From assembly GCA_021812825.1 (NCBI GenBank), contig JAKAMO010000013.1:1-38570 (forward strand): a stretch of DNA of 38,570 nucleotides, in the 5' to 3' direction. The position numbers and the translations under genes were made by a program. Below are positions 1,758-38,477 of this stretch, in pieces. The notes under the pieces are model-generated. The model saw nothing but the letters and a program-made list of their open reading frames with translations, did not search any database and had not been told where the DNA came from. Numbering within the stretch: the first letter of the stretch is position 1; each line of letters begins with the position of its first letter. This DNA is from a bacterium. Lineage in GTDB: Bacteria; Elusimicrobiota; Elusimicrobia; Elusimicrobiales; UBA9959.

Positions 1758-1771
1758 TATTATATTTTACC
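1758..1771. promoter_or_regulatory. Back-to-back -10 elements for rnd (+) and the RluE-type operon (-)
   Basis: The only AT-rich patch between the divergent genes holds TATATT on the plus strand (1761-1766, 5 nt before the ATG at 1772; the offset hexamer TATTAT at 1758-1763 lies 8 nt before it) and TATAAT on the minus strand (1764-1759). The hexamers overlap, so RNA polymerase could open only one at a time. No clear -35 box is visible for either. Called from sequence pattern only. Confidence 0.45.
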
Positions 1772-2926
1772 ATGAGTTATTCCTTCATCGATAAGCAGAA
1801 GGACTTCAACGACCTCTGCTCCAGCCTGGCCAAGCACGAATACATCTCCCTGGATACCGAGTCCAACAGCCTCTACGCCTACAAGGAGAAGCTCTGCCTC
1901 CTGCAGATCTCCTCGGACCGCATCAACGCCGTGGTGGACACGCTGGCCGTGGACCTGAAGCCGATACTGCCGATCTTCGCGGACCCCGCGGTGGAGAAGA
2001 TCTTCCATTCCGCCGACTCCGACATCCGTGTGTTCAAGGGCGCCGTCAAATGCACGTTCGTGAACATCTTCGACGTGATGGTGGCCGCCAAGTACCTGGG
2101 CATAATCAAGTGCGGCCTCGACAACATGGTCAAGGAGTTCTTCCAGGTGGAGCTCAATAAGAAGTTCCAGAAGGCCGACTGGGGCCGGCGCCCGCTCACG
2201 AAGGAGATGCTGGACTACGCCAGCTCCGATACCATCTACCTGAAGAAGCTGCGGGACCTGCTGGGCGCGCAGCTCGACGAGAAGGGCAGGCTGGAGGAAG
2301 CGCGGGGGCAGTTCGAGCATATCTGCCGCATCGAGCCCACTCCTATGCGTTTCGACGAGAGCGGTTTCCTGACGCTCAAGGGTGCGCGCCAGCTCAACGG
2401 CCGCGGCCTCGCCGTGCTGCGCGAGCTGTATATCGCCCGCGAGGTCGCGGCGATAAAGAAGGATAGCCCGCCCTTCAAGGTCATCAGCGAGGACCTGATG
2501 CTGCGCCTGTCCGTGGCTCCGCGAGAGGGCCTGCACAACCTCTCCATCTTCAAGGGCGTCAGCGGCTACGTGCTGGCCAACCACGGCCCGTGGATACGCG
2601 AGGCGCTGCAGAAGGGGCTGAACGCCCCGCCCTACCATGTCCCGCACCGGGAGATCTCCCGCGAGAAGCGGGCCTATTTCGAGACGGTGAAGAACCGCTT
2701 CAAGGCGCTGAAGCTCTGGCGCAAGGAGACCGCCGCCCGCCGCAACATGCTGCCGGAGGCCATCATGGGCAATGATATCCTGGAGCGGGTGGCCATGGCC
2801 CAGATCCGCAGCGTCGCGGACCTGCAGGTCATCCGGGGAATGGGGGCGGAAAAAGCCTCGCTATACGGCCCCGAGCTCATCGAGTTCCTGAAAAAACACC
2901 ACCAGCTGGGAAGGCCGGGAAAGTAG
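1772..2926 (+). CDS. rnd: Ribonuclease D
   Basis: 3'-5' exoribonuclease of the DEDD superfamily that trims tRNA and other stable RNA 3' ends in the cytosol. Exo I is DTES (D28, E30), Exo II is HSADSDI (D84), and Exo III is YASSD (Y150, D154), so the metal-binding set is complete and the protein is the DEDDy type. Two helical HRDC-like RNA-binding regions follow: about 205-255 (around ARQLNGRGLAVLRELY) and about 300-380 (around MLPEAIMGNDILERVA), as in E. coli RNase D. With the ATG at 1772 it is 384 aa. An ATG at 1754 would add six residues and has an AGGAG 8 nt upstream, but it sits upstream of the -10-like TATATT that ends 5 nt before 1772. I prefer 1772 as a leaderless start; the choice is uncertain. 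Confidence 0.95.
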   Translation: MSYSFIDKQKDFNDLCSSLAKHEYISLDTESNSLYAYKEKLCLLQISSDRINAVVDTLAVDLKPILPIFADPAVEKIFHSADSDIRVFKGAVKCTFVNIFDVMVAAKYLGIIKCGLDNMVKEFFQVELNKKFQKADWGRRPLTKEMLDYASSDTIYLKKLRDLLGAQLDEKGRLEEARGQFEHICRIEPTPMRFDESGFLTLKGARQLNGRGLAVLRELYIAREVAAIKKDSPPFKVISEDLMLRLSVAPREGLHNLSIFKGVSGYVLANHGPWIREALQKGLNAPPYHVPHREISREKRAYFETVKNRFKALKLWRKETAARRNMLPEAIMGNDILERVAMAQIRSVADLQVIRGMGAEKASLYGPELIEFLKKHHQLGRPGK

Positions 2927-2951
2927 GTCCGCTGCTCCACCTTATATTCAT

Positions 2952-2980
2952 GGAGGCCCTGTTCAGGGGCCTTCCGCATT
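2952..2980 (+). terminator. Possible terminator of rnd
   Basis: A GC-rich imperfect hairpin (GGAGGCCCTG / CAGGGGCCTTCC, with two single-base bulges) is followed by GCATTTTC. The T-tract is short, so termination may be weak. It lies 26 nt past the rnd stop and in front of the converging ygiQ end. Confidence 0.4.
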
Positions 2981-3011
2981 TTCTGACAGCGGGGTGCTGT
3001 TGCGTGCGGGG

Positions 3012-4784
3012 CTATCGTCCGAGCAGCTTCTTTATCAGGTCGGGGCGGTTTATGGCGCGCAGGGCTTTCAGCACCAGCGGGCGGTTCTCCGGTTTGTAGT
3101 ACTGGAGCAGCGCCCTCTGCTGGCGGCGCTCCTCTTCCTTCTTCGGCACGTAGACAGGCTCCAGCGTGAACGGGTCCAGCCCGGTGAAGTATATGGACGT
3201 GGCGTACTCCATAGGCGCGGGCAGGAAATCGTTTATCTGCTGCGGGCGTATGCCCCTCTCCTTCAGGAAGACCGCCAGCTCCGCCATGTCGGCGAGCGTG
3301 GAGCCGGGGTGCGCGGAGATGAAGTAGAGCACCAGGTACTGCTCCCTGCCGGCTTTCCTCGATTCGGCCAGGAACCTGTCGGCGAACTCCTTGAAGACCT
3401 CGACGGACGGCTTCTTCATCACCGACAGGACCCCGGGCGAGACATGCTCCGGCGCCACCTTGAGCTGACCGCCGGTGTGAAAACGTGCTATCTCGGAGAT
3501 GTACTCCCCGCATTTGAGCGCCAGGTCCATGCGGATGCCGCTCGCCACGAAGGCTTTTTTAAGGCCCTTGAGCGCGCGGACGCGGCGCATCAGCGCCAGC
3601 AGCGGCTTGTGGTCGGTGCTAAGGTTGGGGCAGATGACGGGGTGGACGCAGGAAAGTTTTTTGCAGGCTTTGCAGACCTCCATGTCGCGGCCGTGCATGC
3701 CGTACATGTTGGCCGACGGGGCTCCGAGGTCCGAGATGTTGCCAGGATGCCTGGGCATGTCCAGCAGCCGCCTCGCCTCCTTCTCTACCGAGCCCGGCGA
3801 GCGCTCCTGGATGAAGCGGCCCTGGTGCAGCGTCAGCGAGCAGAACGCGCAGCCGCCGAAGCAGCCGCGGTGTATCACGATGGAGTCTTTGATCATCTCC
3901 AGCGCCGGTATCGGCTCCTTGTACGACGGGTGGGCCCGCTTCGTGAAAGGCAGGCCGTAGACGAAGTCCATCTCCTCCGTGGTCAGCGGCAGCGCGGGGG
4001 GATTCTGCACTACGGCCTTGCCCTCGCTCCTCTGCACCAGAACGGCGGCGTTGTAGGGGTTCGAGTTCTCGTATATCAGGCGCGTCGCCGTAGAGAATTT
4101 CACCCGGTCGCCCGCCACCTCTCCCGCGGACGGCAGCTCTGCCGCGCCGGGTATGTTCAGGGCAGCCGTCTCTTTGGCGCCCAGCGGGTAGGCCGTGCCG
4201 CGTATGTCGCGCAGGTCGTGTATCTTCTCGCCGGCCTTCAGGCGGGCCGCAATCTCGCGCGCCTGGCGCTCGCCCATGCCGTAGACCAGCAGGTCGGCCT
4301 TGGAGTCCAGCAGCACGCTCTTGCGCACCTTGTCGGACCAGTAGTCGTAATGCGCGAAGCGGCGCATCGTGGCCTCTATGCCGCCGATCACGACGGGCGC
4401 GTCGGGATAGACCTCGCGGCAGCGCTGAGAGTAGATGATCGTAGCCCGGTCGGGGCGCAGGCCGGCGCGGCCGCCGGGGGAAAAATCGTCCGACGAACGC
4501 ACCTTCCGGTTGTGCGTGTACTTGTTGATCATCGAGTCCATGTTCCCGGCGGAGACGCCGAAGAACAGGCGCGGGCGGCCGAACTTCCTGAAGTCGGAGC
4601 AGTCGTCCCAGCGCGGCTGGGCGAGTATGGCAACGCGAAGACCCTCCGCCTCCAGCACGCGGCCGAGAAGGGCCATGGCGAAGGAGGGATGGTCCACGTA
4701 GGCGTCGCCGGTGACCAGGACTATGTCGACATAGTCCCAGCCAAGCGTCTTGAACTCCTGCGTCGTCACGGGGAGGAATCCCAT
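3012..4784 (-). CDS. ygiQ: YgiQ-family radical SAM protein
   Basis: Large UPF0313-type radical SAM enzyme, 590 aa, of unknown substrate. The cluster-binding motif is CFGGCAFC (C308, C312, C315: CxxxCxxC), preceded by a long N-terminal region with GGIEATMRRFAHYDYW and YGMGERQA that is typical of YgiQ. After the radical SAM core come the CKACKKLSC cysteine cluster and the C-terminal YYKPENRPLVLKAL segment, both expected in the family. The start is placed at ATG 4784 (MGFLPVTTQEFKTLGWD), the usual YgiQ N-terminus. A TTG 14 codons upstream (4826) would add MEPRARRPFCYHLC, which does not look conserved. There is no Shine-Dalgarno; TATCAT ends 6 nt before the ATG, suggesting a leaderless message. 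It is a single-gene unit between rnd and the barrel protein. Confidence 0.95.
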   Translation of the reverse strand: MGFLPVTTQEFKTLGWDYVDIVLVTGDAYVDHPSFAMALLGRVLEAEGLRVAILAQPRWDDCSDFRKFGRPRLFFGVSAGNMDSMINKYTHNRKVRSSDDFSPGGRAGLRPDRATIIYSQRCREVYPDAPVVIGGIEATMRRFAHYDYWSDKVRKSVLLDSKADLLVYGMGERQAREIAARLKAGEKIHDLRDIRGTAYPLGAKETAALNIPGAAELPSAGEVAGDRVKFSTATRLIYENSNPYNAAVLVQRSEGKAVVQNPPALPLTTEEMDFVYGLPFTKRAHPSYKEPIPALEMIKDSIVIHRGCFGGCAFCSLTLHQGRFIQERSPGSVEKEARRLLDMPRHPGNISDLGAPSANMYGMHGRDMEVCKACKKLSCVHPVICPNLSTDHKPLLALMRRVRALKGLKKAFVASGIRMDLALKCGEYISEIARFHTGGQLKVAPEHVSPGVLSVMKKPSVEVFKEFADRFLAESRKAGREQYLVLYFISAHPGSTLADMAELAVFLKERGIRPQQINDFLPAPMEYATSIYFTGLDPFTLEPVYVPKKEEERRQQRALLQYYKPENRPLVLKALRAINRPDLIKKLLGR

Positions 4785-4790
4785 GCATAG

Positions 4791-4796
4791 ATGATA
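4791..4796 (-). promoter_or_regulatory. -10-like TATCAT, 6 nt before the ygiQ ATG
   Basis: On the minus strand the order is TATCAT, CTATGC, ATG. With standard spacing transcription would begin at the A of the start codon. No -35 match is evident. Confidence 0.4.
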
Positions 4797-4843
4797 GCAA
4801 AAGGGGCGCCTTGCGCGGGGTTCCAAACCTAGCCTTTTTATGC

Positions 4844-4849
4844 GATAAT
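4844..4849 (+). promoter_or_regulatory. Candidate -10 (GATAAT) for the outer-membrane barrel gene
   Basis: GATAAT lies in an AT-rich island upstream of the gene at 4890 and would give a leader of about 35 nt that includes AGGAG. A second AT-rich stretch (TATATC, 4863-4868) is an alternative. No convincing -35 is seen. Confidence 0.25.
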
Positions 4850-4889
4850 ATTACGAACGCGTATATCTTTGCGAATTATAGGAGACCCC

Positions 4890-5627: not shown

Positions 5628-5656
5628 GCAGTCGGGAGGCTGGCAGCCATAACACC

Positions 5657-5722
5657 GGTCCCCGCAAAGGCGGGGCCCTCTGGGGGAAGCTTAAAGGTTT
5701 CCCGGCTGTATCGCAGGGCCGC
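5657..5722 (+). other. GC-rich structured leader upstream of rocD
   Basis: The 118 bp between the barrel gene and rocD can fold into successive hairpins: CCCCGC-AAAG-GCGGGG (5660-5675), then GGGAA/TTCCC around AAGCTTAAAG, then GGC/GCC at about 5704-5720, ending 24 nt before the rocD ATG. The first hairpin has no T-tract, so it is not a normal terminator. It matches no riboswitch class I can recall. It may be a leader regulating rocD or simply GC-rich DNA. Confidence 0.3.
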
Positions 5723-5745
5723 TCCCTTCAACAAGGAGAACCGAC

Positions 5746-6957
5746 ATGGACACCAACGCAGAGAACACTGAAAGCCGCGGTCTGATAGAATCCGCGGAGC
5801 GGTACGGGGCAAATAACTACCATCCCCTTCCGATAGTCATCTCCACCGCCAAGGGCGTGTGGGTGAAGGACCCGGAAGGCAATAAGTACATGGACATGCT
5901 CAGCGCGTACTCTGCGCTGAACCACGGGCACCGGCACCAGCGGGTGCTCAAGGCGCTCGTGCAGCAGTCCAAGCTCGTGACGCTGACCTCGCGTGCCTTC
6001 AACAACGCCCAGCTCGGGCCGTTCCTGAAAGAGCTCTGCGAGTTCAGCGGCTACGAGATGGCGCTGCCGATGAACACCGGCGCCGAGGCCGTGGAGACGG
6101 CGCTGAAGGCCGTGCGCAAGTGGGGCTACAAGGTAAAGGGCGTGCCGGAGGGCAAGGCCGAGATCATCACCTGTTCCAACAACTTCCACGGCCGCACGAT
6201 AACCACCGTCTCGTTCTCGACCGAGCACCAGTACAAGGACGGCTTCGGCCCGTTCACGCCTGGCTTCAGGACCATCGAGTACGGCAATATCGAGCAGCTC
6301 AAAGCGGCCATCACTCCGAACACCGTCGCCTTCCTGCTGGAGCCCATACAGGGCGAGGCCGGCATAATAGTCCCGCCCGCCGGCTTCCTGAAGGCCGCCT
6401 ACGAGCTCTGCAGGGCCAACCGCGTGCTGTTCGTCGCCGACGAGATACAGACCGGCTTCGGCCGCACCGGCCGCAAGTTCGCCTGCGACTACGAGGGCGT
6501 CAGGCCCGACATGATAACGATGGGCAAGGCCCTCGGGGGCGGCGTGCTGCCGATCTCCGCGGTCGTCTCCTCGAAAGAGGTGCTCGGCGTCTTCAACCCC
6601 GGCGACCACGGCAGCACCTTCGGCGGCAACCCGCTGGCCTGCGCGGTGGCCCGCGAGGCCCTGAAGGTCCTGACGGAGGAGAAGCTGGTGGAGAACTCCA
6701 GCGAGACGGGTGAATACTTCATGGGCCTGCTCCGCACCATAAAGGGCAAGCATATCAAGGAAGTCCGCGGGAAAGGGCTGCTGATCGGAGTGGAACTCGA
6801 CTGCAAGGCCAGGCCCTACTGCGAGGAGCTGATGGGGCTGGGACTGCTCTGCAAAGAGACCCATGACCACGTGATACGTTTCGCGCCGCCGCTCGTGATC
6901 ACGCGCAAGGAGATAGACTGGGCCTTCCGCCGCATAAAGAAGGTGCTCAGGAAATAG
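5746..6957 (+). CDS. rocD: Ornithine aminotransferase
   Basis: PLP-dependent class-III aminotransferase that transfers the delta-amino group of ornithine to 2-oxoglutarate, giving glutamate semialdehyde (arginine/ornithine catabolism or proline synthesis); cytosolic. 403 aa, the normal length. Features in order: [18 protein letters not shown] (23-40) and the YSALNHGH segment near 55-62, typical of ornithine rather than acetylornithine aminotransferases; [14 protein letters not shown] (109-122); [28 protein letters not shown] (D232 contacts PLP); [14 protein letters not shown] with the Schiff-base lysine K261; and [14 protein letters not shown]. The start is supported by AAGGAG 7 nt upstream. 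Not obviously in an operon; a structured leader precedes it and a long palindrome follows. Confidence 0.95.
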
Positions 6958-6967
6958 CCAGCAGCGG

Positions 6968-6993
6968 CAGGCCGGCGCAGCTGCGCCGGCCTG
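6968..6993 (+). terminator. Perfect 26-bp palindrome after rocD, terminator-like
   Basis: A perfect inverted repeat with no spacer (two 13-nt arms, the left arm CAGGCCGGCGCAG) begins 11 nt after the rocD stop and is followed by AACGCTTTTC. It would fold into a very stable hairpin. The T-run is only four, so it may end rocD transcription partly or act as an mRNA-stabilising hairpin. The murB ATG lies 13 nt beyond it. Confidence 0.5.
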
Positions 6994-7006
6994 AACGCTT
7001 TTCAGG

Positions 7007-14092: not shown

Positions 14093-14413
14093 TTAAAAGC
14101 GGCGGAAGGTGAAGGAGTGTTTTGCGCCGGAACCGAGCAGCTTGAACAGCAGGTAGAAGGCGAAGGCGCCGGCCAGCATCAGCGGGATGCCCAGCAGGGC
14201 GCCTATCACGGTAGAGGTGAGCAGCGCCCCGGTCAGCAGCAGCGCGGCCCCAGCCAGCCCCAGTACCGCCGCTAGCGTCCCTTTGAGGCGCTCCAGCAGT
14301 CCAGGGGGGGAGGGAGGAGGTCCGGCAGGACGCTCCGGCCTCGGACCGGCCCCGGGGCCGAGCAGCTCCGGCTCGATGACCTCCTCGGAAACGGTAACGC
14401 GTCTGTCGTACAT
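14093..14413 (-). CDS. Small two-TM membrane protein, unknown function
   Basis: A 106-aa protein with an acidic, Pro-rich cytosol-like N-terminus (MYDRRVTVSEEVIEPELLG, then GPGAGPRPERPAGPPPSPPG) and two hydrophobic segments at about 46-66 and 68-91, ending in a basic tail (KHSFTFRRF). I recognise no family. The ATG at 14413 has no Shine-Dalgarno, but TAGAAT ends exactly 6 nt upstream, the leaderless pattern also seen at 20319 and 4784. It faces away from the fibronectin-like gene at 14507 across 93 bp. The coding potential is supported by the two tidy membrane segments and the promoter, yet the frame is short, so some doubt remains. Confidence 0.65.
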   Translation of the reverse strand: MYDRRVTVSEEVIEPELLGPGAGPRPERPAGPPPSPPGLLERLKGTLAAVLGLAGAALLLTGALLTSTVIGALLGIPLMLAGAFAFYLLFKLLGSGAKHSFTFRRF

Positions 14414-14419
14414 GTCTAA

Positions 14420-14425
14420 ATTCTA
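14420..14425 (-). promoter_or_regulatory. -10-like TAGAAT, 6 nt before the ATG at 14413
   Basis: On the minus strand the order is TAGAAT, TTAGAC, ATG. This predicts a transcript beginning at the start codon. The same hexamer and spacing recur before the glycosyltransferase at 20319. Confidence 0.45.
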
Positions 14426-19118: not shown

Positions 19119-20319
19119 CGGCGAGCAGCTGCAGCCACTGCGCGGCAACTCTGGACAATTCGAAATCCGACGCCCGCCTGATGCCGTCCCCGGCGTAGAC
19201 ACGCAGGGCGGCGGGCGCCTGCAGCATCTCAGCCATTTTCCCCGACCAGACCAGTTCCTCGGGCTCGGCCGCGGCCTTGGCCGCTAGCCTGCGGCCCGAA
19301 AGCCTGGGCATCAGCACTCCAAACTCGGCGTTCTCCGGAGCGAGGGCTCTCGCGTCCGGCGCGGTGGACGGCGCCAGTATCTCGCGCGGTCCGGAGTCGC
19401 AGTCGGCGGATATCACCGGGGCTCCCGCGGCCATCGCCTCAAGCAGCGCGTTGGGGAAGCCCTCCCAGAGGGAGGTGAAGGCGAAGATCCTGGCACGGGC
19501 GGTGAAGGCGTGGGGATTCGGGCGGAAGCCGGCGAAATAGACGTCGGCGCCGGCGGGAGGCGCGCCGTGGCCCGCGAAACAGGAGAGGCCCAGGTCGCCG
19601 GCCAGGCCGATCAGGTACTTCTCCAGCTCTCCTTCCCCCAGGAACACCAGGGCGGCTCCTGGAACGGCCTTCCTGACCTCTCCGAAGATGCGCAGCAGAT
19701 GCCAGTGCCCCTTGGCGGCGGTCAGGCGGCCGCCTGTGATTATCACGGACCTGGCGAACACCGCGTCCCAGCCCTCCGGCAGCGCCGCCGCCGCCTGCGC
19801 GGCGATGCCGGCCGTGTCGCAGCCGTTGTTGATCACGCGGACCTTCTCCTGCGGCACTCCGAAGTTGGCGCAGAGGTCGCGGCTAACGCCGCGGGAGTTG
19901 GCTACCACGATGTCCGCTTTCGGGTAGTTGCGCCGTATCAGCGGCCTCATCAGCGCGCCGCGCAGGCCGGAGAACTCTCCCGACGGGCTGGTACGCTCGC
20001 AGATGACGGCCCTGTGGCCTGAGCGGGCCGCCGCCATCACGTTGACGATGTTCGCGCGTTCCATGAAGGAGAGCACTGTGTCGCCGGGGCCGGTCATGGC
20101 GGCCAGGCGCCTGGCGTACGACGGGATGGCCGCCGTCTTCATCAGCGGGGAGGTGGACTCCTTGTGCGCGGAAAGTATGACAGGGCGCTGCGGGACGGGC
20201 TGTGATACCTCGTCCTCGAGCAGCAGCAGCGAATCATGCGGGAGCAGCTTGGCCAGCGCGGCGAACTGTTTTTCGGCGCCGCCGCGGAAGAGGGAATTGA
20301 TCAGCAGCTTCAGTCCCAT
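19108..20319 (-). CDS. GT4-family glycosyltransferase
   Basis: A 403-aa cytosolic or membrane-associated GT-B enzyme that transfers a sugar from a nucleotide donor. N-terminal acceptor domain motifs are INSLFRGGAEKQFAALAKLL (7-26), ICERTSPS and VANSRGVSRDL; the C-terminal donor domain starts around INNGCD and GGRLTAAKGHWHLL. The GT4 E-x7-E region appears as SLWEGFPNALLEAMAAGAP followed by DSGPREIL. Acceptor and sugar cannot be inferred; close relatives act in lipopolysaccharide, glycan or amylovoran-type synthesis. There is no Shine-Dalgarno; TAGAAT ends 6 nt before the ATG. It stands alone, not in a polysaccharide cluster, with its 3' end overlapping the PorV-type gene. Confidence 0.92.
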   Translation of the reverse strand: MGLKLLINSLFRGGAEKQFAALAKLLPHDSLLLLEDEVSQPVPQRPVILSAHKESTSPLMKTAAIPSYARRLAAMTGPGDTVLSFMERANIVNVMAAARSGHRAVICERTSPSGEFSGLRGALMRPLIRRNYPKADIVVANSRGVSRDLCANFGVPQEKVRVINNGCDTAGIAAQAAAALPEGWDAVFARSVIITGGRLTAAKGHWHLLRIFGEVRKAVPGAALVFLGEGELEKYLIGLAGDLGLSCFAGHGAPPAGADVYFAGFRPNPHAFTARARIFAFTSLWEGFPNALLEAMAAGAPVISADCDSGPREILAPSTAPDARALAPENAEFGVLMPRLSGRRLAAKAAAEPEELVWSGKMAEMLQAPAALRVYAGDGIRRASDFELSRVAAQWLQLLAATT

Positions 20320-20325
20320 CAGGCA

Positions 20326-20331
20326 ATTCTA
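20326..20331 (-). promoter_or_regulatory. -10-like TAGAAT, 6 nt before the glycosyltransferase ATG
   Basis: On the minus strand the order is TAGAAT, TGCCTG, ATG, which predicts a leaderless message. Confidence 0.45.
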
Positions 20332-20362
20332 GAATATTTTCACTGCGGCGGGGGGAAAGAAG

Positions 20363-22210: not shown

Positions 22211-22213
22211 CTT

Positions 22214-25459: not shown

Positions 25460-25487
25460 GTTATCCTACGGCGATTCTAGAATACAA
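25460..25487 (-). promoter_or_regulatory. Candidate promoter of the VWA-GH3-lepB operon
   Basis: On the minus strand TTGTAT (25487-25482), a 16-nt spacer, then GATAAC (25465-25460) would give a leader of about 16-18 nt containing AGGGG before the ATG at 25437. This is the best -35/-10 pair I can see in the window, still imperfect. Confidence 0.35.
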
Positions 25488-25548: not shown

Positions 25549-25554
25549 TATTTT
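25549..25554 (+). promoter_or_regulatory. -10-like TATTTT, 7 nt before the apbE ATG
   Basis: TATTTT, TAGGGAT, ATG (plus strand). This predicts a message starting at or one base before the start codon. The AGGGA right next to the ATG is too close to act as a normal ribosome site. Confidence 0.4.
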
Positions 25555-25561
25555 TAGGGAT

Positions 25562-26593
25562 ATGACGGCGAATACCGCCCTGACGAGAGCCTTGCGCCTG
25601 TTCCTTCCCGCCGCGCTGATCCTGGCGGCCGCCGCCTGCGGAAAGCGGCCGGACGAGGTCTACCTTCAGAAGGCCTTCATCATGGGCGTCCCGGCCCAGG
25701 TGAAGGTGTACGGCGCCGACGAGGCTTCGGGCAAGGAGATCGCGGACTCCGTTTTCAAGGAATGGGAACGGATCTCCGGGGATTTCAGCTATACCGACCC
25801 ATACAGCATGACGTCGGTGGTGAACAAGAAGGCCTTCGGCGACTGGGTGAAGGTCAACTACGAGTTCCTGTCCCTGCTGCGCCTTTCGCTTGACTACTAT
25901 AAGCTGACCGACGGCGCTTTCGACATCACCTTCGCCCCGCTCTGGCCCATCTGGCAGCAGGCCGCCTCCACCAAGAAGATGCCCTCCAGGGAGGAGATCG
26001 CGAAGGCGCTGGCCAACATGGGCTCCGGCTACGTGCAGGTGGACGAGACCCGGAAAATGGTGCGCTTCTCCAGGCCGGTGCAGATAAACCTGGGGGGGAT
26101 ACTGCGCGGCTACTGTGTCGTCCGGGCGGCCAGGATGCTGCGGGAGATGAACCCTCCCTACCCGGTGGAGCTGTGGCTGGGCAGCAACATGCTGGCCTAC
26201 GGCAAGCGGGACTGGGAGTACCCGGTCACGGACCCGTTCGACGCGGACAAGACCTTCGGCAAGTTCAAGTTCAGCCAGGGGGTGATGCTCTCTTCTTCGG
26301 GGCGCGAGCATTTCGTGCAGATAGAGGGGAAGCTGTATTCCCACATCCTCGACCTCAAGACAGGCTATCCGCTGCCGGACTTCTCCAGCCTGGTGGTGTA
26401 TTTCCCGCGGCTGGAGAGCGAGAACTACATGTCCTCCGCCATGCTGGCCGTGATGGGCAGGCAGAAGGCCTTCTCGCTGCTCTCCAGGATGAAGGGTACC
26501 GCCGCGGTATGGATAGACGGCTCCGGGAAGGAGACCGTGCTGACCAACCCCGACAGCGGCGCGGTGTGGGAGAAGACCCGCAAGCTCTTCTGA
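25562..26593 (+). CDS. apbE: ApbE-family (FAD:protein FMN transferase-like) lipoprotein, atypical
   Basis: A 343-aa lipoprotein: the signal LFLPAALILAAAACGK has a lipobox with AAC. ApbE proteins use FAD to attach FMN to threonine in exported proteins (NqrB/C, RnfG). Family landmarks are present: GDFSYTDPYSMTSVVN, LTDGAFDITFAPL, VQINLGGILRGY, SSGREHFVQIEGKLYSHILD and DLKTGYPL. Several usual residues differ. The common DLGGIAKGY...D reads NLGGILRGYCVV (D to N, K to R, second D lost), and the C-terminal metal-binding ADAxxTA segment reads YMSSAMLAVMG (D to Y, T to A). It may be a divergent transferase or a non-catalytic FAD binder. No Nqr/Rnf gene is nearby. It ends at a shared strong terminator. 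Confidence 0.85.
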   Translation: MTANTALTRALRLFLPAALILAAAACGKRPDEVYLQKAFIMGVPAQVKVYGADEASGKEIADSVFKEWERISGDFSYTDPYSMTSVVNKKAFGDWVKVNYEFLSLLRLSLDYYKLTDGAFDITFAPLWPIWQQAASTKKMPSREEIAKALANMGSGYVQVDETRKMVRFSRPVQINLGGILRGYCVVRAARMLREMNPPYPVELWLGSNMLAYGKRDWEYPVTDPFDADKTFGKFKFSQGVMLSSSGREHFVQIEGKLYSHILDLKTGYPLPDFSSLVVYFPRLESENYMSSAMLAVMGRQKAFSLLSRMKGTAAVWIDGSGKETVLTNPDSGAVWEKTRKLF

Positions 26594-27146: not shown

Positions 27147-27155
27147 GGTGGGGAC

Positions 27156-27183: not shown

Positions 27184-27191
27184 CCGGTTCC

Positions 27192-28634: not shown

Positions 28635-28716
28635 TTTAGGGTCCTCCGGAAAATGGTCTGGGCGACCTGCGTCGGCCAATTACATATTACCATTTTGCTA
28701 TCATTTATACCCGGCC

Positions 28717-29925
28717 ATGAACGACGCGAAATACGCCCGCAGGGTATTGGTGCTGATCTTCGCCCTCAGCCTGTTCAACTATATCGACAGGCAGGTGCTG
28801 TACGCCGTCTTCCCGCTGATAAAGACCGACCTCCGCTTAAGCGACGCGCAGCTCGGCTTTCTGGCTTCGTCTTTCATGATAGTGTACATGTGCGTGGCCC
28901 CTTTCGTGGGCTACCTGGGCGACAGGCTTCGCCGCCCGGCCATCATAGGCCTCAGTGCCGTCTTCTGGAGCGTCTCCACCCTTTTCAGCGGCCTCGTGAA
29001 GAACTACGCCCAACTGGCCGTGACGCGCTCGGCCGTGGGCGTCGGCGAGGCCGGCTACGGTACCGTCTCCCCGTCCTTCCTGGCCGAATGGTTCCCGCCG
29101 GCCCGCAGGGCCAGGATCATGGCGCTGTACGCGCTGGCCATCCCGGCGGGCAGCGCGGTCGGCTATCTGCTGGGAGGATACCTCGGCCAGCGTTTCGGCT
29201 GGCGGGAGGCCTTCTACATCGTCGCCGTACCGGGCCTCCTGCTGGGGCTGGCCTCGCTGACGCTGAAGGAAACGCACGAAAAGACATCGCGGGCGGAGCA
29301 TGTCCCGCTTTCCGGCTATAAAGCGCTGTTCACCAACCGGACCTTCATGCTCGTCTGCCTGGCGCAGTCCATAGGCACGTTCACCGTGGGAGGCCTGGCC
29401 GCCTGGATGCCTTCCTACTTCGTGAGGACCTTCGGGGTCTCAGTGGCGAGGGCCGGGTTCCTGTTCGGGGCCGTGACCGTGGCGGCGGGCGTCGCCGGCA
29501 ATTTCGCCGGCGGCTGGGCCGCGGACTGGCTGCGCTCCCGTACCCGGCGCGCCTATTTCGTGGTCGGTTACGCCAGCTTTTTCCTGAGCGTGCCTTTCGG
29601 CGCGGCTTCCATACTTGCCGGGAACCTGAGCGCGTGCCTGGCGCTGATGTTCTTCGCCGAATTCTTCATCTTCGCCTATTCCGGCCCGTACCACGCCGCC
29701 ATCGTTGAGACGGTGCCGTCCGGCATGCGCTCTATGGCCTTTGCCGTGGACATTTTCATAATCCACGCGCTCGGCGACGCCGTGTCACCGTTCCTGCTGG
29801 GTCTGGTCTCGGACGCGGCCGGGCTGCCGTTCGCTATCTTCCTCGCCATACTTTATCTGATGCTGGGCGGCGTGGTCTCCATAGCCGCCGGCGAAGCTTA
29901 CAAAAAGGACTTCAACGACAAATGA
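28717..29925 (+). CDS. MFS transporter, Spinster-like
   Basis: A 402-aa inner-membrane secondary transporter with 12 predicted hydrophobic segments. The N-terminal NYIDRQVLYAVFPLIKTDL and LSDAQLGFLASSFMIVYM are typical of the Spinster-type MFS group; the loop 2-3 motif is GYLGDRLRRP, and AVGVGEAGYGTVSPSF and GWREAFYIVAVPGLLLG also match. Substrate is unknown (relatives move lipids, sugars or organic acids). The start is ATG 28717, since upstream in-frame codons overlap the divergent M18 gene. No Shine-Dalgarno is present; TATCAT ends 12 nt upstream, so the leader would be about 6 nt or absent. The stop overlaps the next gene by 4 nt (ATGA). Confidence 0.92.
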   Translation: MNDAKYARRVLVLIFALSLFNYIDRQVLYAVFPLIKTDLRLSDAQLGFLASSFMIVYMCVAPFVGYLGDRLRRPAIIGLSAVFWSVSTLFSGLVKNYAQLAVTRSAVGVGEAGYGTVSPSFLAEWFPPARRARIMALYALAIPAGSAVGYLLGGYLGQRFGWREAFYIVAVPGLLLGLASLTLKETHEKTSRAEHVPLSGYKALFTNRTFMLVCLAQSIGTFTVGGLAAWMPSYFVRTFGVSVARAGFLFGAVTVAAGVAGNFAGGWAADWLRSRTRRAYFVVGYASFFLSVPFGAASILAGNLSACLALMFFAEFFIFAYSGPYHAAIVETVPSGMRSMAFAVDIFIIHALGDAVSPFLLGLVSDAAGLPFAIFLAILYLMLGGVVSIAAGEAYKKDFNDK

Positions 29926-30572: not shown

Positions 30573-30600
30573 TAGCCCTGTAGCGGAGCTGCTTCCCTGT

Positions 30601-30630
30601 AAGGCATCCTGCAAGGATGCCTTTTGCTTT
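30601..30630 (+). terminator. Terminator of the MFS-RluA unit
   Basis: A perfect 10-bp stem (AAGGCATCCT / AGGATGCCTT) with loop GCA is followed by TTTGCTTT, 29 nt past the stop. Confidence 0.88.
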
Positions 30631-30699
30631 GGCGCCCGGCACGCTGAAACTTCGACCCGCCGGCCGCATCTAAATAGGAAGGGAAAAAGGAGAGACCAT

Positions 30700-31341: not shown

Positions 31342-31349
31342 GAGGGGTT

Positions 31350-31556: not shown

Positions 31557-31559
31557 GGA

Positions 31560-34500
31560 CTAGCGGGCAGCCAGCTCTATTTCCGCCGAGCGCTCCGCTC
31601 CTTCGGAAAGATAGGTCACGGATACTTTCTGCCCGGGCGAGAGCTCTTTCAGCAGGACCGAATAGGCCCTGAGGTCCTCCACGGGCCTCCCCTCCAACTT
31701 CACGATAACGTCGCCGGCCCGCAGACCGGCCTTCTCCAGCGGGGAGCCGGGAGTTATCTCCTGGGCTCTCACGCCTTTGCCGGGGAACGCGAAGTCGGGG
31801 ACCAGTCCCGTTGAGACCTTCCTCTGTCCCGCCGGGCCGGCCGCCGCCGGCTTCCCGGAGGGGCGCGTCAGGAATTCGGAGTCCCCGGCCAGATAGTCTA
31901 TTATCTCCCTGGAGAACTCCGCTATCCTCACCATGCCCCGCGTATCCAGCTTGTCCGGGGTGTCGGACGGCTTGTGATAGTCCGGATCGGGACCGCTGAA
32001 CAGCTGGATGGCCGGTATCACGGCGGAGATGAAGCTGGTCTGGTCGCTGGAGTCCAGGTCCCCGGCGGGGGCGTTGTCGGCCCCCGTCACGAAGCCGGCA
32101 CCCCGGAGCACGTGCACCCACTTGTCGGAGGAGCCGGCGCCTATCGCGAGTATCTTGCCAGAGCCGAGCCTGCCCACCGTGTCGAAGTTCAGCGCGGCAT
32201 CGGTCCTTTCCTTTATGTCGCGGGGCAGCGAGGCTACGAAGGCCCTGGACCCGGCCAGGGCGGTCTCCTCCCCGTCGAAAGCGGCGAAGACGAGGGTGCG
32301 CGCCTGCGGATGGGCCGCGTAATACCGGGCCAGCTCCAGCAGCAGCGCGACTCCCGAGGCGTTGTCGTCGGCCCCGGGGTATACGGTACCGGCCTTCTCC
32401 GGGAGATGGTCGTAATGTGCGGTAAGGAAGACGTATTCCGCCGGGCGGGACGTCCCGCGCACCGCGCCGGAAACGTTGCGCTCTCCGGGCTTCGCTTCCG
32501 GGACGAACTTGTCGGCGGGGAAGGGCTTGAGGCCGGCTTTCCTGAAGGTGCCGGAGATCCGGGCCGCCGCCTTGTCGTGGCCTTTGGAGCCCGGGGCCCT
32601 GCCTCCCGGCAACTCTGCCAGGAAGTAGGCGTCCTCCTTCAGCCGGCTCTCCGAGAAGGCGGAAGGGAGCTCCGCCAGCGGGGCGCGCTGCGGGTACGGG
32701 CCTTCGCCCGGCGAGGGGTCCGCGAAGTCGACCGACAGGGGGGACTTGCGCACCGGCCAGATCCCGGTGGCCACGGAGTTCATGCCGGAGTCGAATACCA
32801 GCCAGGAGTATTTGCCGTAATGAGGGAGCTTGGAGGCCAGCAACTGCAGCTTGTCGCGGCTGTCGGAAAGTACCAGCGCGGCCGAACGCTCCGCGGAGGC
32901 GGGGTTGAAGGCGGCGAAGACGAAGGTGTTTCCGGCAAGCGGAAAGACGCGGTTGTCCAGCGTGACGGAATCGCCGGAGAAGACCGCCCCGTAACGGGCC
33001 AGCGATCTTTCGAAGTCGGGGGCGAAGCGGTTCTCGCCGCCGAACAGCCAGTAAGAGGCCGCCTCGGGAGGGGCGGGGAGTCCGGAATCCTCCGCGATAG
33101 CGGGAAGGTTGTTCCTGTCCTTGTTCCAGGCCACGGCCAGGTCCCGCCACCGCGCGCCATCCGCTCCGGCGGGGATCAGTATAGCCGGCTTCTCCGCTCC
33201 GAGGACGCGGGAAAGTGTAGGCGGGGTCTCCAGGGGGTCCAGACGGCGGAACACGTCGAACTCCGGGTCTATCTCCAGACGCAGCGGCATAACCGGGACC
33301 GAATAGTGGAAGGTGTCCTCGGGGCCGGAGACGGACAGCATCTTCATGCGCGGCGCCGGCTGGCCGGCAAGGTAGATGGCCGCCGGGACCTGCAGGGAAT
33401 AAGGCGGGCCGTCCTGGACCTGCGCCACGGTAAAGTCCAGATCGTAGCCTTCCGCCGTCCGCGTTACCCTGGCGTCGCGCAGCTGCAGGGCCGGGGCCCC
33501 GGCGCGCCGCGTCCACTGGTCGAAGAACGGCTTGAGGCGGCCGGGGCCGGTCACGGACTCGAAGGCAGCGCGCAGGTGATCGAAAGAGGTGGTCCGGAAG
33601 AGGTTGTCGGCGTAGAACTTCCGGAGACTCTTGCGGAAGGCGTCGTCCCCCAGCATGTTCCGGAGCATATGGTACATCATCAGGGCCTTGCCGTAGCCTA
33701 CGGCCTCGGAGGCGGAGGAATGCCTGGAGCGGAACTCCGTCAGCGGGAAGTCGGCGCCGCCGTTGACGTAGTCGGAATATTTCTGCAGCGTCGTCATCCG
33801 GTAGTCGCGGGCCTTTCCCCTGTTCTCGGCTATCAGGTAGTCGGCCAGGTACGACGTAAGCCCCTCGCACCAGTTGCCGGAGGGGTAGTCGACGAAGACG
33901 CCGTTGCCCCACCAGTTGTGCAGGATCTCGTGGGGATAGGAGGTGTTGATGATGAACGGCAGCCGTATCACCTTGCTGCCCAGCAGCGTGAAGGACGGCA
34001 TGCCGTAGCCCGTGTCCCAGAAATTCTCTATGAGCGCGAACTTGCGGTAGGGGTACGGCCCGATCAGGTCCGAATACATTCCGATGTAGCGGCCTGTGGC
34101 TTCAAGGTAGCGCTCCGCCAGCTCCCGGTCCGGCTGCAGCAGGAAAGCGTAATACTTGAGGCCGCGCTCCTCGCGGGAATACTCGGTATACCTGCCGCAG
34201 GTCATGATTATCTCGTCCTGGGGGGTGGAGGTCTCCCAGCGGGCGCGCGTGACTCCGCCCTTCGTTCCATGCTCCGTCCTGTCTCCTCCCGAGACGGTGT
34301 CGTACGGGGCGGGGATGACCGTGTTAAGGTCGAAGGTCACGAGGCCGTCCCCGAACGAGGGATACCACCCGGAAGCTCCGGAAAGGTAGCAGCCGTCGGC
34401 GGAGATTATCCCCGGCGTTTCGGAGAAGCTCCTGGCGTATTCCTGCGCCTTCTCGTCCGGCGGCTGGAAGATGCGGCCGGAGTATTTCAGCGTGAAGGAC

Positions 34501-34799
34501 GAGGCCGGCTTCGCGAAGGAGAGCTTGTAGCTGGTGAGTGGGGCCGCGCCGTCGGAATTTATCCCGTAGCGGGCGGCTGCCCCGGCCGGCAGCTCTTCCA
34601 GGGACCCGCCATTTACCGACGGAGACATCCCCTTGTGCAGGCTGAAGACCACCTCCCGCGACGGGGACCGGAGGGTCACCTTGTCGCTTACTTCTATCAG
34701 GGAATCCGCCGGGACTATCCTCGCGTCTATCGAGTGCCTCATGGACGAGGCGGAAGCGGCGGCGGGCAGTAGGGCCAGGAGAAGGGGGAGAGCGTTCAT
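31560..34799 (-). CDS. Secreted M1-type / M28-type peptidase fusion with C-terminal PDZ
   Basis: A 1079-aa exported protein with signal peptide MNALPLLLALLPAAASASS. Residues about 1-450 form an M1 gluzincin: TGYGMPSFTLLG in place of the GxMEN loop, HEILHNWWGN (H290, E291, H294) and NWCEGL (E312) as third zinc ligand. Residues about 455-735 are a linker with beta-rich parts. An M28 aminopeptidase follows: TAHYDHL (H795, D797), PGADDNASGVALLLEL, FDGEETALAGSR, NFDTVG and DYHKPSDTPDKLD, giving all five metal ligands and the catalytic Glu. The last ~85 residues are a PDZ domain (VRAQEITPGSPLEKAGLRAGDVIVKL, split across two strands). The ATG at 34799 has no Shine-Dalgarno; TAGTAT ends 6 nt upstream. 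It may degrade extracellular peptides for uptake. Confidence 0.92.
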   Translation of the reverse strand: MNALPLLLALLPAAASASSMRHSIDARIVPADSLIEVSDKVTLRSPSREVVFSLHKGMSPSVNGGSLEELPAGAAARYGINSDGAAPLTSYKLSFAKPASSFTLKYSGRIFQPPDEKAQEYARSFSETPGIISADGCYLSGASGWYPSFGDGLVTFDLNTVIPAPYDTVSGGDRTEHGTKGGVTRARWETSTPQDEIIMTCGRYTEYSREERGLKYYAFLLQPDRELAERYLEATGRYIGMYSDLIGPYPYRKFALIENFWDTGYGMPSFTLLGSKVIRLPFIINTSYPHEILHNWWGNGVFVDYPSGNWCEGLTSYLADYLIAENRGKARDYRMTTLQKYSDYVNGGADFPLTEFRSRHSSASEAVGYGKALMMYHMLRNMLGDDAFRKSLRKFYADNLFRTTSFDHLRAAFESVTGPGRLKPFFDQWTRRAGAPALQLRDARVTRTAEGYDLDFTVAQVQDGPPYSLQVPAAIYLAGQPAPRMKMLSVSGPEDTFHYSVPVMPLRLEIDPEFDVFRRLDPLETPPTLSRVLGAEKPAILIPAGADGARWRDLAVAWNKDRNNLPAIAEDSGLPAPPEAASYWLFGGENRFAPDFERSLARYGAVFSGDSVTLDNRVFPLAGNTFVFAAFNPASAERSAALVLSDSRDKLQLLASKLPHYGKYSWLVFDSGMNSVATGIWPVRKSPLSVDFADPSPGEGPYPQRAPLAELPSAFSESRLKEDAYFLAELPGGRAPGSKGHDKAAARISGTFRKAGLKPFPADKFVPEAKPGERNVSGAVRGTSRPAEYVFLTAHYDHLPEKAGTVYPGADDNASGVALLLELARYYAAHPQARTLVFAAFDGEETALAGSRAFVASLPRDIKERTDAALNFDTVGRLGSGKILAIGAGSSDKWVHVLRGAGFVTGADNAPAGDLDSSDQTSFISAVIPAIQLFSGPDPDYHKPSDTPDKLDTRGMVRIAEFSREIIDYLAGDSEFLTRPSGKPAAAGPAGQRKVSTGLVPDFAFPGKGVRAQEITPGSPLEKAGLRAGDVIVKLEGRPVEDLRAYSVLLKELSPGQKVSVTYLSEGAERSAEIELAAR

Positions 34800-34805
34800 A
34801 GGGAT

Positions 34806-34811
34806 ATACTA
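34806..34811 (-). promoter_or_regulatory. -10-like TAGTAT, 6 nt before the peptidase-fusion ATG
   Basis: On the minus strand the order is TAGTAT, ATCCCT, ATG; an overlapping TATAGT ends 8 nt before the ATG. Either predicts a leaderless or near-leaderless mRNA. Confidence 0.42.
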
Positions 34812-34884
34812 TAATTTTCCGGCACGGGCGAGGAACCGGCGGATCCGCCCGCCAGCGGCGGTAGTGCCCCTCCCGGGGATTTGG

Positions 34885-34890
34885 TAGAAT
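34885..34890 (+). promoter_or_regulatory. -10-like TAGAAT for the deoB-like gene, short leader
   Basis: TAGAAT lies 16 nt before the ATG at 34907. The predicted leader is about 10 nt and just includes GGAGGA (34898-34903), so here a ribosome site is present, unlike the leaderless cases with the same hexamer. Confidence 0.4.
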
Positions 34891-34906
34891 CTTGCACGGA
34901 GGAACC

Positions 34907-36133
34907 ATGAAACACGCACAGAGGACCGGACTGCTGATGGTGATAGACGCCGTCGGCCTTTCCACGCTGGAGTATCTTCTTTCGAAACATCCCGGCAAGG
35001 TAAAGCTGCCCAACCTGAGCCGCCTCGGCCTGGGAGAGATAGTCCTGCCGGAGTTCGGAAAGCGCCTCGGCAAGGCCTCCGGCAAAGCTTACGCGGCCCG
35101 CGTCAGCCAGGTCTCCGCCACGGCGGACAGCCTGGTGGGGCACCGCGAGATGATGGGCGTGGTGGACCACCGCACCTACGACCTGTTCCCCGACGGTTTC
35201 AGGAAGGACTACCTGGCGGAGCTGGAGCGCCGCATAGGCCGCGGGACCTTCTACAACAAGATGGCCGGCGGCATGGAGGCCATCGAGCTCAACGCCGAGG
35301 AGCACGAGCGCACCGGCAAGCCGATAGCCTACGCGAGCAAGTGCGACCCGCTGATCCAGCTGGCGATGAACGAGTCCGTCATCCCCGTGGCGGAGCAGCA
35401 CAAGATAGCCGAAACCGCCTTCGCTCTGGCGATGGAGATGAAGATCCCCATCACCCGCGCGATAGCGCGCGCCTACGTGAAGAACGAGCAGGGCGAGATC
35501 ATCCGCACCTCCAACCGCCACGACGCCGTGCTGCCGATAGGCCAGCGTACGCTGGTCGACGTGATGAACGCCGCCGCGGTCTGGACCGTCGCGGTGGGCA
35601 AGACCGCCGACCTGGTCAACACCGCTTACCGCGCCAAGATCAAACTGAACCACGAGGTCTACCTCGATCCTTCGCTGAAGCTGCGCTTCGTGCACCCGAA
35701 GAAGAAGGACACCAACCCGTTCTCCATACAGGGCACCATCAACGCGCTGGCCGCCGCGCACGGAGTGTACCGCCCGAAGGGCACGTTCATCTTCACGAAC
35801 CTCGTGGACACCGACAGCGTCTACGGCCACACCCGCGACGTGGAGGGGGCGCTGAAGTCGCTGGAGGAGATAGACCGCTGCCTGCCGCTGATAGAGGATA
35901 ACATGGCCAAGGGCGACCTGCTCGGGATCACCGCCGACCACGGCATGCTGCACCGCGAGGACTACGGCTATCACAACAACGAGCCGCTGCCGTTCATCGC
36001 TTACCGCAAGGGCTGCGACCGGAAGCTGGGCGGCCTGAAGACCGGCCTGATGCCGGGCCTCACCGACATCGGCAGCCTGTTCGCGCAATACTTCGGCCTC
36101 AGGTCCGAATACGCGGCCATAGTGAGGAGCTGA
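34907..36133 (+). CDS. deoB: Phosphopentomutase-like enzyme (DeoB, alkaline phosphatase superfamily)
   Basis: A 408-aa cytosolic enzyme expected to interconvert ribose/deoxyribose 1- and 5-phosphates in nucleoside breakdown. Metal-site motifs: MVIDAVGLSTLEYL (D14), ATADSLVGHREMMG with S75 at the phospho-acceptor position, NLVDTDSVYGHTRD, ITADHGMLHRED and YHNNEPLPFIAY. The cap domain has PIAYASKCDPLIQLAMNE and RTSNRHDAVLPI, both characteristic of DeoB rather than other superfamily members. Known bacterial DeoB has Thr at the acceptor position (DT...GHWE); Ser here is unusual. GGAGG precedes ATG 34907; an upstream in-frame ATG at 34892 (MHGGTM) overlaps that ribosome site and is unlikely. It is followed 2 nt later by a secreted lipocalin-like gene. 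Confidence 0.88.
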   Translation: MKHAQRTGLLMVIDAVGLSTLEYLLSKHPGKVKLPNLSRLGLGEIVLPEFGKRLGKASGKAYAARVSQVSATADSLVGHREMMGVVDHRTYDLFPDGFRKDYLAELERRIGRGTFYNKMAGGMEAIELNAEEHERTGKPIAYASKCDPLIQLAMNESVIPVAEQHKIAETAFALAMEMKIPITRAIARAYVKNEQGEIIRTSNRHDAVLPIGQRTLVDVMNAAAVWTVAVGKTADLVNTAYRAKIKLNHEVYLDPSLKLRFVHPKKKDTNPFSIQGTINALAAAHGVYRPKGTFIFTNLVDTDSVYGHTRDVEGALKSLEEIDRCLPLIEDNMAKGDLLGITADHGMLHREDYGYHNNEPLPFIAYRKGCDRKLGGLKTGLMPGLTDIGSLFAQYFGLRSEYAAIVRS

Positions 36134-36135
36134 CC

Positions 36136-37281: not shown

Positions 37282-37290
37282 GCGGACTTG

Positions 37291-37326
37291 AAAGAAGAAC
37301 CCCGCCTCTCGGCGGGGTTCTTCTTT
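37291..37326. terminator. Bidirectional terminator with a perfect 16-bp stem
   Basis: The arms AAAGAAGAACCCCGCC and GGCGGGGTTCTTCTTT pair perfectly around TCTC. It lies between the convergent lipocalin-like and DUF4015 genes, 9 nt past the first stop and 12 nt from the second, and has T-rich tails in both directions. Confidence 0.92.
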
Positions 37327-37338
37327 GCGGCGTGCGGG

Positions 37339-38463
37339 CTACTTGTAGGCCGGGTCCACGAAGGCCCGGTAGGAATGCGGGGTGAGGGCGGACCAGGTGT
37401 ACTTGTTGGCCGGGTTCCAGAGCACCCAGCTCTCCAGCATGTTGCGGCGCGCGGCTATCAGCTGGGCGCGCACTTCCGGCGGTCCGTAATGCACTCCGAA
37501 GAGGGAGAAATCCTGCAGGTAGGGGCGGACCTTGGCGAAATCCATGCCGAGGCGGCCCATAGCGTCCTTGAGCCCGTGGTTTATCACCCTGTAGGGGCTG
37601 GCGTTGGGGTTCTTCAGCCCATAAATGCCGGGGCCGTAATGCGAGGGGTACATCATCGGGTAGATATAGTCCGCTCCTGAGGCCAGCGTCTTCAGGTCCT
37701 GGCCGATGCCCATGTCGTCCGTCGCGGACGTGGTCAGGCCGAACACGTCGGCCGATATCTTCACCTTGTACGGCGTGAGGCGCTTGCGGGCGTAGCCCAG
37801 GAAATCGCGCAGGTTCGTTATCGCGGTGTGCCGGTTGTGCGTCTTGGAATAGCGGCAGAGGCTGGTGTTCCCTTCCGACGGATAGCGGATATAGTCGAAC
37901 TGTATCTCGTCGAAGCCGAGCTGCGCGCAGCGTTCGGCTATGTCCAGTGTATAGGTCCAGACCTCGCGGTTATAGGGGTCCATCCAGGTGGCCTTGTTGC
38001 TGCTGCGCCAGAGGCCGCCTCCCGGCTCGCGCACGGCGAGGTCGGGGCGCTCCTTAGGGAGTATCTGGTCCTTGAAGACCACTATGCGGGCCACGGTGTA
38101 GAGGCCGGCCTGCTTGAAGTCGCGGAGCATCTCCTCGGGCCTGGTTATAGCTCCGGTGTAGGAGTGGAATTTCTCGGCCTTCTGGATGCCGGGGATGTAG
38201 ACCTTGCCGTCGGTCTCCTTGATAGCCACCACGACCGTGTTTATCACCGAGCCGGAGATCTTTTTTATAATATCCCTGCGGTTCTTCTCGGCGCCGGCGC
38301 CCCACGAGGTGAGATGTATCCCCCTTATGGCGGGGGAGGAGAGCACCAGGGAGCGGATCGCCGTGGTGGAGACCTCCACCTTGGCGGTCGTGGAGGAGAG
38401 TAACGCTGGGTCCGCGGCGCGCGAGGGAGAAGCCAGGAGCAAAAAAAGCGCTGTGAGGAGCAT
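37339..38463 (-). CDS. Exported putative glycoside hydrolase (DUF4015)
   Basis: A 374-aa protein with a signal peptide (MLLTALFLLLASPSRA, cleavage before ADPALL). The TIM-barrel-like DUF4015 domain fills most of it: AIRGIHLTSWGAG at the start of the barrel, NTVVVAIKETDGKVYI, GLYTVARIVVFKD, ATWMDPYNREVWTYTLDIAE, GFDEIQFDYIRYPSEG (acidic residues where GH13-like barrels hold catalytic acids), VKISADVFG, and DYIYPMMYPSHYG. Substrate is unknown; polysaccharide hydrolysis is inferred from the family. Two ATG codons are possible: 38469 (adds MP) and 38463. TAAAAT at 38477-38472 ends 2 nt before the first and 8 nt before the second, so I prefer 38463 as a near-leaderless start. Confidence 0.88.
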   Translation of the reverse strand: MLLTALFLLLASPSRAADPALLSSTTAKVEVSTTAIRSLVLSSPAIRGIHLTSWGAGAEKNRRDIIKKISGSVINTVVVAIKETDGKVYIPGIQKAEKFHSYTGAITRPEEMLRDFKQAGLYTVARIVVFKDQILPKERPDLAVREPGGGLWRSSNKATWMDPYNREVWTYTLDIAERCAQLGFDEIQFDYIRYPSEGNTSLCRYSKTHNRHTAITNLRDFLGYARKRLTPYKVKISADVFGLTTSATDDMGIGQDLKTLASGADYIYPMMYPSHYGPGIYGLKNPNASPYRVINHGLKDAMGRLGMDFAKVRPYLQDFSLFGVHYGPPEVRAQLIAARRNMLESWVLWNPANKYTWSALTPHSYRAFVDPAYK

Positions 38464-38471
38464 AGGCATAT

Positions 38472-38477
38472 ATTTTA
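38472..38477 (-). promoter_or_regulatory. -10-like TAAAAT for the DUF4015 gene
   Basis: TAAAAT on the minus strand ends 8 nt before the ATG at 38463, with no Shine-Dalgarno. The transcript would start within about two bases of that codon. Confidence 0.38.

What the first reader, a model, noticed from the sequence alone, without database searches (positions are those of the whole stretch)
1758..38477. Recurring leaderless-promoter pattern: TANNNT ending 5-8 nt before ATG
Seen directly: rnd (TATATT, 5 nt), ygiQ (TATCAT, 6 nt), the 14413 gene (TAGAAT, 6 nt), glycosyltransferase 20319 (TAGAAT, 6 nt), apbE (TATTTT, 7 nt), peptidase fusion 34799 (TAGTAT, 6 nt) and DUF4015 38463 (TAAAAT, 8 nt). All are heads of transcription units and, apart from an AGGAG that would serve the alternative rnd ATG at 1754, none has a usable Shine-Dalgarno; downstream genes in operons often do. 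In Deinococcus-Thermus and Actinobacteria this arrangement marks leaderless mRNAs. TANNNT is a loose motif, but in GC-rich DNA seven hits at nearly the same distance are unlikely by chance.
Basis: partly seen in the sequence, partly recalled or inferred. Interest (0 to 1): 0.8.

Follow-up and report, generated by a model that had tools for sequence, protein, structure and literature searches.

The report
Leaderless-gene promoters in an Elusimicrobiota genome
Several genes here seem to be switched on by a promoter box so close to the start codon that the messenger RNA begins at the coding sequence itself, with no ribosome-binding leader; this is a known arrangement, seen here in a poorly studied bacterial phylum.

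Summary
The window comes from a GC-rich Elusimicrobiota lineage. Seven of 20 head/mid starts have TANNNT 5-8 nt before the start, against a control mean of 1.63; 0 of 8 inner genes do. The window's own genome is not held. In relative G001 (748 kb, 638 genes, motif-blind starts) TANNNT peaks at exactly 6 nt: 35 of 241 heads, against 5.3 per control gap. It is the only strong outlier among 64 equivalent patterns. Genes with the box at 6-8 nt almost never carry a Shine-Dalgarno: 1 of 67, against 119 of 245 others. Relatives keep the box for rnd, ygiQ, the 14413 gene, the glycosyltransferase and DUF4015, but apbE and the peptidase fusion do not exceed controls. For rnd the conserved box is TGTTATTAT, 8 nt from ATG 1772, not TATATT at 5 nt. 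Best reading: sigma-70 -10 boxes, mostly without a clear -35, that start transcription at or about 2 nt before the start codon. This is a known kind of gene; my searches found no report of it for this phylum. Ten pooled low-GC genomes of the phylum showed no significant peak. No transcript start is mapped.

The parts
   Evidence: TANNNT at gap 6-8 in 21 of 22 relatives; Pfam; coordinates
4782..4799 (-). ygiQ-type radical SAM gene: TGC-TATCAT (box 4791-4796), gap 6, ATG 4784
   Evidence: gap 6-8 in 20 of 22 relatives; Pfam
14411..14425 (-). 106-aa protein without Pfam match: TAGAAT 14420-14425, gap 6, ATG 14413
   Evidence: gap 6-8 in 14 of 14 relatives with a placed start, of 21 loci
20317..20335 (-). 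glycosyltransferase: TAGAAT 20326-20331 inside ATTCTAGAAT, gap 6, ATG 20319
   Evidence: box at gap 6-8 in 11 of 18 relatives (two read by eye)
25549..25564 (+). ApbE-family gene: TATTTT, gap 7, ATG 25562; weak candidate
   Evidence: gap 6-8 in 8 of 22 relatives, control windows 0-8
34797..34811 (-). M1/M28/PDZ peptidase fusion: TAGTAT 34806-34811, gap 6, ATG 34799; AT element conserved, spacing not
   Evidence: gap 6-8 in 1 of 17 relatives, control windows 0-7
38461..38477 (-). DUF4015 (putative glycosyl hydrolase) gene: TAAAAT 38472-38477, gap 8, ATG 38463
   Evidence: gap 8 box in 16 of 21 placed starts of 22 relatives
34885..34909 (+). contrast case, metalloenzyme-superfamily gene 34907: TAGAAT 34885-34890 followed by GGAGG 34898-34902, i.e. 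a short leader with Shine-Dalgarno
28696..28719 (+). intermediate case, MFS gene 28717: TGC-TATCAT at gap 12, no Shine-Dalgarno core

Best explanation
In this GC-rich Elusimicrobiota clade a sizeable minority of transcription-unit heads use leaderless promoters. A -10 box (mostly TAnAAT, in a quarter of cases with an extended TGn) lies 6 nt, sometimes 7-8 nt, before the start codon. RNA polymerase with the primary sigma factor would then start at the first base of the codon or 1-2 nt before it, and ribosomes would start on a 5'-terminal AUG without Shine-Dalgarno pairing. Other heads and operon-internal genes often use Shine-Dalgarno leaders. Shown: motif, spacing, exclusion of Shine-Dalgarno, conservation. 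Inferred: the transcription start, the sigma factor and leaderless translation. Rough share in G001: excess (69 - 19) of 312 head/mid genes, about 16%, or about 8% of the 606 scored genes.
For: Peak at gap 6 in G001 heads, 35 against 5.27 per gap, SD 2.72, maximum 14 at gaps 21-80. TANNNT z 9.2, next of 64 patterns z 2.7. Shine-Dalgarno in 1 of 67 with the box, 119 of 245 without, 26 of 53 AT-matched controls; frequency rises with box distance. Extended TGn 17 of 67 against 34 of 385. Conservation for five genes. Depletion in a Bacillales pool, 2 against 17.5. RpoD of relative G123 aligns with solved SigA over regions 2-4.
Against: No transcript ends. apbE and peptidase boxes are not conserved beyond controls. 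A -35 is not clearly present. No significant peak in ten pooled low-GC genomes of the phylum. A-richness after the start and ATG use are not higher than in Shine-Dalgarno heads: A 0.33 against 0.42; ATG 58 of 67 against 114 of 119. Gap 8 (rnd, DUF4015) may leave a 1-2 nt leader.
Confidence: 0.88

Rival explanations
1. Ordinary -10 boxes of promoters with short leaders of varying length; the genes are translated from AU-rich leaders without Shine-Dalgarno and the distance to the codon has no special meaning.
For: Boxes also occur at gaps 9-14, 29 strict cases, only 5 with Shine-Dalgarno. For the peptidase the box is conserved and its distance is not.
Against: A narrow peak at gap 6, and near-constant spacing in ygiQ, the 14413 gene and DUF4015 across diverged relatives.
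Confidence: 0.08
2. The AT-rich stretch is a translation signal (unstructured or S1-binding region), not a promoter.
For: The sites lack a Shine-Dalgarno and lie in AT-rich sequence.
Against: Only TANNNT is enriched: other AT patterns such as TTNNNT (0 against 7.3) and ATNNNT (3 against 4.65) are not. It is restricted to heads, not inner genes.
Confidence: 0.02
3. Chance matches of a loose motif.
For: In the window alone one control position reaches 5 of 20. The apbE site may be such a case.
Against: Peak in independent sequence and conservation in relatives.
Confidence: 0.01

Closest known systems
TA-led (leaderless) bacterial genes of Zheng et al. 2011, PMC3160421 (abstract and passages seen)
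   Same: TANNNT resembling the -10 box about 12 bp upstream of the start counted from its first T, which equals gap 6 here; no Shine-Dalgarno; patchy distribution among groups.
   Different: Their list of groups in the text does not name Elusimicrobia ('Elusi' 0 times); an unnamed 'Other Bacteria' row (8 of 20 genomes) could include one.
-10 motif adjacent to ORFs in Deinococcus-Thermus, Zhong et al. 2025, PMC12340547 (abstract, passages and section 11 seen)
   Same: TANNNT a few bp before the ORF, classical -35 absent in most such genes, specific spacing, leaderless mRNA.
   Different: Experimentally tested there; about 30% of ORFs there against roughly 8% of genes estimated here. Their bacteria-wide figure S7 is not held, so its phyla could not be checked ('Elusimicrobi' 0 times in the text).
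Leaderless transcriptome of Mycobacterium tuberculosis, PMC3898074 (search listing and start of abstract only)
   Same: Genome-wide class of leaderless genes in a GC-rich bacterium.
   Different: Transcript starts were mapped there; not here.

Membership tests
Leaderless (TA-led) bacterial genes | TANNNT with first T about 12 bp upstream of the start | tested here: met
   G001 peak at gap 6; seven window sites at gaps 5-8
Leaderless (TA-led) bacterial genes | Positional aggregation over the genome, in the window's own genome | not testable with these tools
   Own genome not held; met in relative G001
Leaderless (TA-led) bacterial genes | No Shine-Dalgarno | tested here: met
   0 of 7 in the window, 1 of 67 in G001
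Leaderless (TA-led) bacterial genes | mRNA 5' end at or within a few nt of the start codon | not testable with these tools
   No transcript data
Leaderless (TA-led) bacterial genes | Translation without a leader | not testable with these tools
   Needs reporter or ribosome data
Sigma-70 -10 / extended -10 promoters | T1, A2, T6 with an A-rich centre; TGn in part | tested here: met
   Base table and hexamer counts; TGn 17 of 67 against 34 of 385
Sigma-70 -10 / extended -10 promoters | Primary sigma with conserved regions 2-4 | tested here: met
   RpoD of relative G123 against solved SigA; the window's own RpoD was not seen
Sigma-70 two-box promoters | TTGACA-like -35 at 15-19 nt | tested here: inconclusive
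   At least 4 of 6 matches in 18 of 67, 7-14 of 67 at four control spacings

The most novel reading that the evidence does not exclude
Leaderless initiation is a standing second mode of gene expression in one GC-rich branch of Elusimicrobiota, kept or gained there and much weaker in low-GC relatives. For particular genes (ygiQ, rnd, DUF4015) selection has held the box-to-codon spacing across wide divergence because their leaderless state is itself a regulatory property.
Probability: 0.25. Interest if true: 0.55.

Novelty: new member of a known kind. Interest (0 to 1): 0.38.

Why it matters
If true, it adds a mostly uncultured phylum to the groups with substantial leaderless expression. It gives a rule that improves start calls in these genomes (rnd ATG 1772; DUF4015 ATG 38463, which my motif-blind finder missed). 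The phylum also offers lineages with and without a detectable signal, useful for asking why leaderless genes are kept or lost.

Tried and rejected
Rejected: chance; mechanical exclusion of Shine-Dalgarno by any AT hexamer (26 of 53 AT-matched controls keep one); ATG 1754 as rnd start and the rnd box TATATT.

Led nowhere or inconclusive: ATTCTAGAAT as a common two-way box (1 copy in 748 kb of G001); a -35 element; the 16S 3' end (1 of 4 genomes had a 16S match and it stopped at model position 902 of 1533). Breadth (strict boxes at gap 6-8): G001 52 against 7.4 expected, G116 6 against 0.5, ten low-GC genomes pooled 11 against 7.4 (239 heads; gap 6 alone 6 against 2.5); G032 0 against 0.9, G114 1 against 0.2, G090 3 against 0.9, G102 1 against 0.1 and G092 0 against 0.1 have too few heads (11-29) to judge. 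Seventeen genomes were read in part, of 119 of the phylum given handles. The first gene finder missed many genes in low-GC DNA and was replaced; low-GC starts stay less certain.

Literature: 'leaderless' with 'Elusimicrobi' gave 2 papers. Passages of PMC10783764 were seen (Elusimicrobia and Endomicrobia stand in its table of antiSD classes); PMC7448276 was seen as a listing only. One search gave one paper, PMC10434106; its passage is a reference to Lomsadze et al. 2018, which I did not read. Searches gave one paper each and eight listed, all seen as listings. Most subscription papers are not in the library, and supplements could not be read.

Full report
Source. The aminotransferase-like protein at 5746-6957 has its 22 best loci in Elusimicrobia MAGs or untitled 'bacterium' MAGs at 72-94% identity. 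The nearest genome, G123 (isolate SKS1.bin104), is 83-90% identical in DNA in nine of the thirteen pieces aligned, counting repeats of the same stretch, with shorter pieces at 94-97%: a close relative, not the same strain. The window's own genome is not held. GWB2_63_22 (G001) was used for statistics, 22 genomes for orthologues, and 15 further genomes plus G027 for breadth.

Observation in the window. My gene finder chooses starts by codon usage and start-codon type and never looks at upstream motifs. Of 20 head/mid starts, 7 have TANNNT at gap 5-8, against a mean of 1.63 and a maximum of 5 in equally wide control windows; 0 of 8 inner genes do. None of the 7 has a Shine-Dalgarno core; 8 of the other 13 do. 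The window alone is suggestive, but the motif was noticed first, so independent sequence was needed.

Independent test. In 748 kb of G001 (40 stretches of a 3.1 Mb genome; 638 genes, 606 scorable), TANNNT counts in 241 heads are 4, 5, 35, 12, 12 and 7 at gaps 4-9, against a mean of 5.27 (SD 2.72, maximum 14) at gaps 21-80. Of 275 inner genes 5 have it at gap 6, as at other near gaps. Internal in-frame ATGs show 4 of 3651 at gap 6, the lowest of gaps 0-20 (range 4-26). Of all 64 XXNNNX patterns at gap 6 only TANNNT stands out strongly (40 of 312 head/mid, 6.5 expected, z 9.2; next z 2.7). A Bacillales pool of 455 head/mid starts shows 2 at gap 6 against 17.5 per control gap. A 6-nt gap is where a sigma-70 promoter would place its start on the first base of the codon (established knowledge; Zheng et al. 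give the same position).

Link with translation signals. 1 of 67 genes with a box at 6-8 nt has GGAG/AGGA/GAGG at -18..-4, against 119 of 245 others. The box might simply fill the place, but 26 of 53 genes with other AT hexamers at the same gaps keep a Shine-Dalgarno. With strict -10 boxes the Shine-Dalgarno count by gap is 1 of 52 (6-8), 5 of 29 (9-14), 10 of 23 (15-24), 28 of 51 (25-40) and 22 of 44 (41-60). The window shows both states side by side: 34799 (box at 6 nt, no Shine-Dalgarno) and the divergent 34907 (TAGAAT 16 nt upstream, GGAGG in between).

Relatives (22 genomes, related to each other, so counts are not independent). Box at gap 6-8: rnd 21 of 22; ygiQ 20 of 22; DUF4015 16 of 21 placed starts of 22; the 14413 gene 14 of 14 placed of 21 loci; apbE 8 of 22; peptidase 1 of 17. 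Glycosyltransferase 11 of 18 (9 by script, L377 and L383 by eye). Control 5-gap windows at 15-49 nt: rnd 0-4, ygiQ 0-5, DUF4015 0-2 except 12 at 15-19 (part of the same conserved tract), 14413 gene 0-2 except 9 at 45-49, peptidase 0-7, apbE 0-8. Five genes are well supported, two are not. For the peptidase the AT element is conserved while its distance to the start varies, and in G090, G118 and G132 a GGAGG lies between. In four relatives (L373, L374, L387, L388) the glycosyltransferase lacks the box and begins close behind, or overlapping, what reads as the end of the preceding gene (inferred).

Promoter type. Of 40 gap-6 boxes, TAGAAT 10, TATAAT 9, TAAAAT 7, TACAAT 3, TATCAT 3, eight others once each. 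TGn precedes 17 of 67, against 34 of 385 control hexamers (P 5e-4). A -35 is weak at best (18 of 67 with at least 4 of 6 matches; controls 7-14). RpoD of G123 aligns with solved SigA through regions 2-4, including RTIRIPVHM; that this stretch contacts an extended -10 is recalled, not tested. A-richness after the start (0.33 against 0.42 in Shine-Dalgarno heads) and ATG use (58 of 67 against 114 of 119) do not favour a special initiation class.

Breadth. The signal is strong in G001 and present in distant GC-rich G116; ten low-GC genomes pooled show 11 against 7.4 expected, and other GC-rich samples are too small. Single ygiQ starts in low-GC or distant loci look leaderless (L234, L294, L302, L310, L312, by eye), while many others in the same list do not. 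So it is established for this clade and open elsewhere.

Verdict. It is a known gene class in a phylum for which my searches found no report (limits in Tried and rejected). Mapped transcript ends would settle it.

Noticed in passing
window 34799-34907; L105, L106, L108, L267, L268: The region between the divergent peptidase and metalloenzyme genes holds, in these relatives, AT elements that read as -10-like boxes on both strands (AAAGTT...AACTTT arms in L267), which suggests a two-way promoter or a regulator site (by eye).
   Followed up: no
window 20326-20335 and 25474-25483: The palindrome ATTCTAGAAT, a -10 box on both strands, occurs twice in the window but once in 748 kb of G001.
   Followed up: partly
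G001 stretches L083-L102 and L314-L333, intergenic: The palindrome TTCACGTGAA occurs 4 times in 121 kb of intergenic DNA against 0.04 expected, perhaps a regulator site.
   Followed up: no
window 31560-34799: One ORF with Peptidase_M1, Peptidase_M28 and PDZ matches; at least 16 of 22 relatives give a match over more than half its length.
   Followed up: no
window 38511-38570, + strand: A probable gene start at the right edge (ATGAAGCTTCTGCAA, preceded by AAAGGGGAA), divergent from DUF4015.
   Followed up: no
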